64,000 nucleotides of DNA, from contig NC_090291.1 in assembly GCF_037392515.1 (NCBI RefSeq), positions 38,401,001 through 38,465,000 on the forward strand, in the 5' to 3' direction. This stretch comes from Haliotis asinina. Taxonomy: Eukaryota; Mollusca; Gastropoda; Lepetellida; Haliotidae. Below are positions 23,107 to 63,728 of this stretch, piece by piece. The translations under genes were made by a program, and so were the position numbers. The notes under the pieces were generated by a model. That model saw only the letters and a list, made by a program, of their open reading frames with translations, was not told the origin of the DNA and made no database searches. Position 1 is the stretch's first letter; every line of letters begins with the position of its first letter.

Positions 23107-29570
<6,464 letters not shown>

Positions 29571-60965: not shown

Positions 60966-61152
60966 AGTGTGAGTGTGTTAGAGTGTGTATATGTATTCAT
61001 GCTGTCTGTCTGTATGTATGTGCGTGCGTGCGTGCGTGCGTGCATGCGTGCGTGCGTGCATGCGTGTATGTATGTATGTATGTATGAATGAATGAGTGTG
61101 TGTGTGTGTGTGTGTGTGTGCGTGTATGTATGTATTTATGTATATATGTAAG
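60966..61152 (+). repeat. Compound GT/GTAT/CGTG microsatellite
   Basis: Runs of (GTGC)n, (GTAT)n and (GT)n lie 40-250 bp upstream of the start codon of the next gene. Confidence 0.95.
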
Positions 61153-61221
61153 TAATGTTTACAGCCTTTGTTTGCTTTCCTTTGATCAGTGTGTAACCTG
61201 ATACAGGGTAAAGGATCTGCT

Positions 61222-63113
61222 ATGGCGAGGTATAAATCCAGCTTGTGCTTTCTGGTCATGTCCAGCATCATCCTCGTAACTCAGGGGACACATTACCCTA
61301 GCAACTCTCGCTCTGATGGGATAGACGAAAAAGGGAGCGAAACAATGCCTAAAGAAGAATCTCCTTACCGAGATGAAGAGGAAGGAAGACTAGATCTTCT
61401 CGGCGAGACACAGTACGCCAGCCATCTTCAGAAAAGATCTACTGGTTAGAAACTGAAAATGAGTATTTTACTGATATCTAACAGTAATTATTTTCAGTAG
61501 TTTCAAACGAACATTGACCAAGGTATATTGTCTAAACATAATATTATGAGCAAGATTATTATTGAAGACAAATGTACCAGAAAACATGCAGGAATATTTC
61601 CTTCAGCTAATTTGTGTTTTTCTGTGCAGATGTCTGCCTTGAGCAGTGGGATCTGGTCTTGGAAACCTCTAGCTCGGGGAATGTGATTAACGGCAGTGTG
61701 GAGGCTCTATACGATGCTTTCACTCAAGGTAGCAGAGTCAAGTTTTTCTCGAACGATTTCGATGGTGGTGCAATGGGAGAGTTTGAAGGCTGTCGGGCTT
61801 ATCAAGGGAACATATGCTGTCAGTTCCTCAGAAATCTGCAAATTGACTCGTGGAATGTTACCGTACCAGATCCGGTCTGGATGTTTGCAATAATATGCAC
61901 AACGGGAGACGCCCAAAAGCTTATGTTTTATGTAGGGGACAACTTCATTAAACAGAAAACGGTCACGATAGACGTTTCTTGGTATGCTACATCAACTACG
62001 TGTGATGGAAGGGCAGGGTTAGTCTACGCCATCGATCAAAACGGAAATGTCACGTCCGGCACGAACTTGGCCTTAACCAACGCAGTAGAAAGGGGATACA
62101 CATTGACTGTTGTCAACGGCGTCCCAAATTCATTCCAAGTTCACAATATTGAGGTCGAACCAGATACAGGCGGGGACAGGCTTGTGGGTGTTCAAAGTAT
62201 TTGGCATCATGGATTCAAAAAACTAAGTGATATTTTGATATTCAGCCAGAACAAACGCTGGGTGTTCTTTACTATAGGATCGAATGGACAAGAGACAACC
62301 GAGCGCTGGAGCGTTGGGAGTCACACGAGGCAGACTGCGGCTCGAAACATGAGAAATTTTGACTGGTTTGTTGATCCATGTTGGCGATACGTGTACGCTA
62401 ATGACGAGAATGGGAATGAAGTTGGAGGCTCACTTGACGCGCTTATAGAAGCCGTAGAAGATGGGCACAGAGTGAAAGCACTTTTCGGGAACTACTCCGC
62501 GGAGCTCGATAACTTTAGAATACTGGGAGGGCATGTTTCAGGACAGATTGTCTCCTTCTTGGAAAAAAATGGTACTTTGGAACTGAACACCAACGTCACC
62601 TGGGCGTTCCGCATCCTCAACACTGATGGAACCGTGAATACATTCAGAGTTCTAGTAGGCGAGGCTGCTGATGGGCCGGGGGGTGATACCACAGAGCGCA
62701 TGCCCATAGCATGGTACGTGGATACCAGATCCTGGGTGAAACTACTAAACACAGACACTAGTGGAGCGGTCATTTCGGGGTCTAAAGCTTCGATCCGAGA
62801 TGCTATAACCAGAGGAGCAGATATCAGGGTAGCTGTTACCATTCCTGGAGATCTTGTTGCTGGGCAACAGTTTCTCAGAGCTGACAGTCTCAGGCTAGGG
62901 CCGGATGGACACACTGCAATGCAGTCTACAAGAGTGTTAGGCGAGGAACAGATCAGTGCCAGCGAAGTACTACTCTTCTCTCAACCATCCTGGGCGTTCA
63001 AAACCGTCTCGACCCTTAGTGAAGTTGGAACTATCGAGACTCTTGTTGGGGATAGATCACTATTAGGCTCAAGAACAGAGGCAGCGGAAGTGATATGGTT
63101 TGGAACATTCTGA
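61222..63113 (+). CDS. Secreted four-repeat protein with dibasic propeptide
   Basis: Two exons, 61222-61444 and 61630-63113 (phase 1; donor GTTAGA, acceptor TGTGCAG), give 568 residues. The first 22 residues are a signal peptide (LCFLVMSSIILVTQG). Residues 23-72 are an acidic propeptide ending in QKR, a furin-like cut site. Four domains of about 116-128 residues follow, starting near 77, 192, 320 and 436. Each has a W(Y/F) start, a D..GN...GS..AL..A...G..(V/L) segment (GNVINGSVEALYDA; GNVTSGTNLALTNA; GNEVGGSLDALIEA; GAVISGSKASIRDA) and a WxF-type strand near its end (WMFAIICTTGD; WVFFTIGSNG; WAFRILNTDG; WAFKTVSTL). Six N-glycosylation sequons and few cysteines are present, mostly in the first domain. 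The domain is not one I can name. An in-frame ATG at 61189 would add 11 polar residues and weaken the signal peptide, so 61222 is preferred. Confidence 0.88.
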
Positions 63114-63544: not shown

Positions 63545-63550
63545 AATAAA
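63545..63550 (+). promoter_or_regulatory. Polyadenylation signal AATAAA
   Basis: AATAAA 432 bp after the stop codon of the four-repeat secreted protein. Confidence 0.6.
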
Positions 63551-63589
63551 AGTGGCATAATCCATTCCACATCCATGCTAAATGCAGGG

Positions 63590-63728
63590 CGGAGGGTAGT
63601 CCAATGGTTGTTGCGTTCGGTCGTCACGCCGAAGGTCCGGGTTCGAGTTCCACATGGGTACAATGTGTGTCCCCCGCTGTGATATTGCTGAAGTATTGCT
63701 AAAGGCGGTGTAAAACTAAACTCACTCA
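63590..63728 (+). mobile_element. SINE family B
   Basis: GGAGGGTAGTCCAATGGTTG (A box), GTCCGGGTTCGAGTTCCACA (B box) and GGCGGTGTAAAACTAAACTC. Confidence 0.9.

What the first reader, a model, noticed from the sequence alone, without database searches (positions are those of the whole stretch)
61222..63113. Secreted proprotein built of four copies of an unnamed domain
The repeat (W(Y/F) ... D..GN...GS..AL..A...G ... WxF...TG) occurs four times, ends with a fifth partial start (VIWFGTF), and is preceded by a signal peptide and an acidic prosegment ending in KR. I cannot place the domain. A mollusc-specific or rapidly evolving secreted family, or one acquired from bacteria, are both possible.
Basis: partly seen in the sequence, partly recalled or inferred. 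Interest (0 to 1): 0.7.

Follow-up and report, generated by a model that had tools for sequence, protein, structure and literature searches.

The report
Abalone secreted protein, bacterial-type unnamed domain
An abalone gene makes a secreted protein built of four copies of a domain that standard domain catalogues do not list; the same domain turns up singly or in pairs in a few bacteria, so its origin and its job can be tested.

Summary
Exon 1 (61222-61444: signal-like peptide, acidic stretch, KR) and one long exon (61630-63113) encode 568 aa with four ~120-aa repeats. In five of six repeat pairs 0 of 2000 shuffles score as well; R1/R2 is weak, 42 of 2000. The "fifth partial start" is wrong: W[YF]xxx ends every repeat. 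The genome is abalone-type (egg lysin) and holds nine long loci of the family. Six clustered copies are under purifying selection (dN/dS 0.30-0.53).

Pfam and NCBIfam give no hit over a cut-off. Profiles found bacterial relatives with one domain (L175, L177, L178) or two (L176, L179). A bacteria-only profile scores the window protein 81.9 bits with four matched stretches; the best of 2700 shuffles scores 10.6. The family is sparse in the bacteria sampled.

A VirK-like fold is only suggested (one of two models). My reading: a secreted multivalent binding protein, probably for glycans. Binding is inference. Transfer from bacteria versus ancient origin stays open, since no other animal genomes could be searched.

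The parts
61222..61444 (+). Exon 1: signal-like peptide, acidic stretch, dibasic KR (residues 71-72); ends one base into a codon
61445..61629 (+). Phase-1 GT-AG intron
   Evidence: acceptors at the matching place and phase lie before repeat 1 in 3 of 4 paralogs examined (C6, one C14 copy, C16; not found in the C14 copy at 42.87 Mb)
61630..61994 (+). Repeat 1 (residues 75-196)
61995..62378 (+). Repeat 2 (residues 197-324), the most divergent by its alignment to R1
62379..62726 (+). Repeat 3 (residues 325-440)
62727..63110 (+). Repeat 4 (residues 441-568), ends in IWFGTF; stop codon 63111-63113
63545..63550 (+). Poly-A signal AATAAA

Best explanation
The window gene encodes a secreted glycoprotein made of four copies of a small, mostly beta-strand domain with one helix. 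The domain family is not in Pfam or NCBIfam and is shared with some bacteria, where it occurs as one-domain and two-domain proteins. In abalone the four-repeat array is old: it was in place before the window gene and its C6 paralog split. One branch of the family was then copied in tandem on C14. SHOWN here: gene structure, four repeats, paralogs, purifying selection in the C14 copies, homology to bacterial proteins. INFERRED: export by the signal peptide, cleavage after KR by a dibasic convertase, N-glycosylation at six sequons, and function as a multivalent non-enzymatic binding protein, most likely for glycans of microbes, food algae or mucus. My confidence is about 0.93 for the family and architecture and about 0.35 for glycan binding; the figure below is for the whole.
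For: Frame, splice sites and repeats. Nine long loci in the genome. dN/dS 0.30-0.53 in 15 of 15 pairs of the six C14 copies. A profile of abalone repeats found L175 at E 3.6e-7 over positions 2-124 of 125 in one of 398 genomes. L177 was found by tblastn from L175 alone (E 7e-4), and the abalone-only profile still scores it 30.6 bits. A bacteria-only profile scores the window protein 81.9 bits with four stretches, one per repeat. Shuffle maxima were 10.6 bits (2700 shuffles) and 8.0 (3000). Repeats group by position in a tree: 4 label changes, the least possible, 0 of 200 shuffles as low. For binding rather than catalysis: the 19 columns with one residue in at least 8 of 14 rows are W, G, S, T, A and hydrophobics apart from D at two columns (10/14 and 8/14). 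For glycans: the two-domain L179 gene lies on the same strand between two ORFs with sialidase-like PDB matches, and a sulfatase-like ORF is about 6 kb upstream.
Against: R1/R2 alone are barely alike. In the bacteria-only test repeat 2 scores only 12.6 bits. L176 is weak (20.4 bits). L175 and L176 were picked by the abalone profile and L178 and L179 by a mixed one, so only L177 is free of selection by the abalone profile. Only one of four bacterial neighbourhoods examined has the sialidase/sulfatase setting; the other three show no such pattern around the gene, though L193 has a sulfatase-like ORF (by eye) about 3.3 kb away. No binding assay, transcript or proteome was available. The KR site lacks arginine at P4, so it is not a minimal furin site (recalled rule). 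The tree has only 3 of 15 strongly supported branches.
Confidence: 0.45

Rival explanations
1. The repeat is a divergent VirK-type domain (PF06903), and the protein works as VirK-type secreted proteins do.
For: Foldseek of the repeat-4 model: top PDB match 5xta_A, a VirK family protein, E 7.4e-4, probability 1.00, TM 0.58/0.61 over the whole domain. Profile-profile scores against a VirK set exceed 60 of 60 column shuffles for each of four repeat alignments, in the helix-strand register.
Against: The repeat-3 model (pLDDT 69.7, pTM 0.63) gives no VirK match; its best hit is E 0.21. hhalign probabilities are 4.5-11.7% over 17-31 columns and 2.1% against the abalone VirK-like set alone. None of the four window repeats hits PF06903 at E 10. 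The two cysteines invariant in the VirK set are absent from repeat 4.
Confidence: 0.3
2. The family reached an abalone ancestor from a bacterium as a two-domain gene, was doubled to four domains, and gained a signal exon.
For: Bacterial two-domain proteins L176 and L179 have the same inter-repeat junction (YRWFTDDRPWRCVY, YRFFVDDSWEEVF) as abalone (WFVDPCWRYVY, WYVDTRSWVKLL). All four abalone repeats sit in one exon, with the signal peptide on its own exon.
Against: No animal genome other than this one was searched, so an old animal family with losses is equally open. In the tree bacterial rows take two label changes and have very long branches. Bacterial members are rare: at E <= 1e-3, 0 of 42, 1 of 398, 2 of 395 and 1 of 399 genomes, the last being the same genome as in the 398.
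Confidence: 0.35
3. A secreted hydrolase or other enzyme, with the bacterial neighbours as partner enzymes.
For: The two-domain bacterial gene lies among sialidase-like and sulfatase-like ORFs.
Against: No conserved histidine, lysine, glutamate or arginine column among those kept in at least 8 of 14 rows; only D at two columns. Tandem arrays of divergent copies are unusual for a single active site (general knowledge).
Confidence: 0.12
4. A pseudogene or a chance open frame.
For: No transcript evidence was available here.
Against: An open 495-codon exon with good splice sites and poly-A signal, homologous proteins in the same genome and in bacteria, and purifying selection in the C14 copies (the window gene itself was not tested).
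Confidence: 0.03

Closest known systems
Unnamed bacterial domain proteins found here (L175, L177, L178 with one domain; L176, L179 with two)
   Same: Same domain by reciprocal profiles: W start, D..G....GS..AL..A...G, T.G, W[FY]V end; same junction between tandem copies.
   Different: One or two domains instead of four. L175 and L178 look secreted (by eye), L177 does not. No prosegment with KR was seen.
Abalone paralogs on C6, C14 and C16
   Same: Four-repeat layout in one long exon, acceptor in matching phase before repeat 1 in three of four examined.
   Different: 32% identity to the C6 copy; 18-19% to the C14 and C16 copies in alignment A1, where repeats 1 and 2 are strongly changed. Their signal exons were not found.
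VirK family, PF06903 (solved member 5XTA)
   Same: Similar predicted fold for repeat 4; weak profile similarity over the helix and next strand.
   Different: No Pfam match, no VirK cysteine pair in repeat 4, repeat-3 model does not match. VirK-like proteins form a separate family in the same genome.
Designed and natural 'Bagel' beta-propeller chains in the PDB (8prj, 8prs, 8pra)
   Same: Profile A10 scores them E 1.9e-11 to 1.3e-4.
   Different: Only profile positions 9-41 of 127 align and no single stretch passes alone. I take this as a short motif adding up over repeats. It was not followed further.

Membership tests
Domain family shared with bacteria (unnamed) | Profile from bacterial members finds each abalone repeat | tested here: met
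   Window protein 81.9 bits, four stretches of 18.5, 12.6, 26.8 and 20.0 bits; best of 2700 shuffles 10.6
Domain family shared with bacteria (unnamed) | Profile from abalone repeats finds bacterial members | tested here: met
   L175 33.0, L177 30.6, L178 26.5, L179 45.8, L176 20.4 bits; best of 3000 shuffles 8.0. Only L177 was not selected with an abalone profile
Domain family shared with bacteria (unnamed) | W start, G..G at the 5' hairpin, T.G, W[FY] end | tested here: met
   W7 12/14, G17 13/14, G22 13/14, G124 13/14, W193 13/14 rows of A10
VirK (PF06903) | Pfam gathering score | tested here: not met
   No match for the four window repeats at E 10; genome search gave 0 of 2 matches over cut-off and neither is this gene
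VirK (PF06903) | Two conserved cysteines | tested here: not met
   Two cysteine columns invariant in the six-row VirK set A11; repeat 4 has no cysteine
VirK (PF06903) | Fold | tested here: inconclusive
   Repeat-4 model matches 5xta_A; repeat-3 model does not
Secreted proprotein | Signal peptide and convertase site used in vivo | not testable with these tools
   Sequence features seen; no predictor or proteome
Known lectin or other catalogued domain | Match to a curated model over its cut-off | tested here: not met
   Pfam on 9 proteins and on 14 repeats, NCBIfam on 9 proteins and on 3 bacterial ones, PHROGs on 9: best E 0.014, none over a curated cut-off where one is given. PADLOC was not searched

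The most novel reading that the evidence does not exclude
A catalogue-missing bacterial domain was taken up by an ancestor of abalone as a two-domain gene, doubled to a four-domain secreted protein, and expanded in tandem as a family of glycan-binding defence or mucus proteins: a new animal lectin family of bacterial origin.
Probability: 0.2. Interest if true: 0.75.

Novelty: new variant of a known kind. Interest (0 to 1): 0.45.

Why it matters
It defines a domain family that the curated libraries searched do not hold, with members in bacteria and in an animal. The animal form is a secreted four-repeat protein under selection, in a clustered family. If the binding reading is right it adds a recognition protein family to molluscs; if transfer is right it adds a case of a bacterial domain made into a multi-domain animal secretory protein. 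The sequence alignment alone is enough to seed a Pfam-type model.

Tried and rejected
Calothrix plasmid match (tblastn E 0.9): the protein has P-loop ATPase-like matches, so chance. Caballeronia match (E 7): not followed. NF-YC, LigB-like and VP1 PDB matches (E 0.08-0.54): chance level. Bagel propellers: short stretch only, not pursued. BFVD search of the repeat-4 model: nothing at E <= 0.001, best 0.019. Weak genome matches not used as members: five in 42 genomes at E 0.05-0.84, L180 and L181 (E 0.0066 and 0.0087), and L184 (E 0.0079). L176 repeat 1 was dropped from A9, A10 and the tree because of long inserts. Repeats 1 and 2 of the C14 and C16 copies were left out of A3, A4, A10 and the tree as too changed. 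Viral-contig scans with A1, L175 and L178 (25, 18 and 7 stretches) and one genome-contig scan with A1 (12 stretches) gave no confirmed relative. Phage tblastn with the window protein, L175 and L178: none. Plasmid tblastn with L002, L176, L178, L179 and an abalone VirK-like exon: none. Literature: six searches. From the listings I saw no paper on this domain; that is not proof that none exists. Paper passages seen: PMC6617341 and PMC7325957; all others listing only. The structure paper of 5XTA was not read (title seen in reference lists).

Full report
What is there. At 61222-63113 on the + strand lies a two-exon gene. Exon 1 (61222-61444) codes a signal-like peptide and an acidic stretch that ends in KR. 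A phase-1 intron follows (61445-61629), and one exon (61630-63113) carries four repeats, giving 568 aa. The coding frame of exon 2 has only its final stop, against 13-37 in the other frames, and a poly-A signal follows at 63545. The mature part would be 496 aa, 54.4 kDa, pI 4.78. The 568-aa protein has eight cysteines in all, seven of them in the mature part, and six N-glycosylation sequons, all in the mature part.

The genome and the family. The egg-lysin family PF01303 gives six matches in this genome and none in 14 control genomes, so I take the genome as abalone; that lysin marks abalone is recalled. The genome holds nine long loci of the family: the window gene, one on C6 (32% identity), one on C16 and six on C14 between 42.87 and 43.30 Mb, plus fragments near 43.04 and 43.296 Mb. 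All 15 pairs of the six C14 copies give dN/dS of 0.30-0.53. The C6, C16 and one C14 copy have an acceptor in matching phase just before repeat 1; the C14 copy at 42.87 Mb did not show it. In a tree of 18 repeats the labels bacteria, R1, R2, R3 and R4 need 4 changes, the least possible, and 0 of 200 shuffles do as well; R4 splits in two pairs, bacteria need two changes, and only 3 of 15 branches are strongly supported. The four-repeat array thus predates the split of the window and C6 genes.

Known libraries. Pfam, NCBIfam and PHROGs give nothing over a curated cut-off for nine family proteins (best E 0.014), nor Pfam for 14 repeats, six of them bacterial. PDB by sequence: none for the window protein, chance-level matches for the family profile, and, for profile A10, partial matches to Bagel propellers with no stretch significant alone.

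Bacterial relatives. A profile of eight abalone repeats gave nothing at E <= 1e-3 in 42 bacterial genomes. In 398 genomes of the phylum of an Enterovibrio genome it gave L175, E 3.6e-7, a 149-aa single-domain protein with a signal-like start, and L176 at E 0.0065, with two domains. tblastn with L175 alone then found L177 on a Hymenobacter plasmid (29% over 86%, E 7e-4, not annotated there). A mixed profile found L178 (one domain) and L179 (two domains) among 395 genomes of a Bacteroidota phylum set, and only L175's own genome at E <= 1e-3 among 399 of its order. Reciprocal profiles confirm the link: bacteria-only to window 81.9 bits, abalone-only to the five bacterial proteins 20.4-45.8 bits, with shuffle maxima 10.6 and 8.0. 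The two-domain bacterial proteins have the same junction as abalone (YRFFVDDSWEEVF, YRWFTDDRPWRCVY).

Fold. AlphaFold2 on repeat 4 with the other three window repeats: pLDDT 74.2, pTM 0.69. Its best PDB match is 5xta_A, a VirK family protein (E 7.4e-4, probability 1.00, TM 0.58/0.61). The repeat-3 model (pLDDT 69.7) does not find it. Profile comparisons with a VirK set beat 60 of 60 shuffles for each of four alignments but with probabilities of only 4.5-11.7% over 17-31 columns. I leave VirK kinship as a rival.

Function. Conserved positions are W, G, S, T, A and hydrophobics, with D at two columns, which fits a binding or structural domain better than an enzyme. The L179 gene lies between two ORFs on its strand with sialidase-like PDB matches (best E 2.2e-11 and 2e-9; the second ORF's best match, E 2.7e-26, is a surface layer protein in its other half), and a sulfatase-like ORF (E 4.5e-52) is upstream. 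The other three neighbourhoods examined (L193-L195) do not show this (by eye; L193 has a sulfatase-like ORF about 3.3 kb away). From this I infer glycan binding at about 0.35.

Origin. With one animal genome and sparse bacterial hits I cannot separate transfer from an old family with losses.

Noticed in passing
L029:3-575 and 1384-1857; L030; L031; L034; L036; L026/L028 (own genome C17, C4, C12): Abalone genes that look like a CpeT/CpcT domain (PF06206, E 9.8e-16 in L029) followed by a VirK-like domain (PF06903 below cut-off, E 3.8e-4 to 0.05). Both domains are otherwise known to me from bacteria (recalled).
   Followed up: partly
own genome C17:0.745-0.786 Mb and C4:40.92-40.96 Mb: The CpeT/VirK-like genes occur twice, nearly identical (99-100% for the best pair). 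This may be a second haplotype left in the assembly.
   Followed up: no
window 26662-27720 (-): A 352-aa open frame that looks like a mariner-type transposase (recalled resemblance, not searched).
   Followed up: no
window 61020-61154: Microsatellites (GTGC, TGTA, GT) about 70-200 bases upstream of the start codon.
   Followed up: no
window 63580-63720 and other flank stretches: Interspersed repeats in the flanks that look like tRNA-derived short elements (recalled); ARAGORN finds no tRNA in the window.
   Followed up: no
own genome C14:43295892-43296749 and 43042933-43043064: Broken pieces of the family beside intact copies, a sign of gene birth and loss in the cluster.
   Followed up: no
L192:8142-9038: Two-domain bacterial relative in a run of same-strand ORFs with sulfatase-like and sialidase-like PDB matches.
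   Followed up: partly
literature, PMC6617341 (passages seen): The VirK-like protein of 5XTA is reported to have its only listed relative outside its genus in Francisella halioticida, whose name points to abalone. Possibly coincidence.
   Followed up: no
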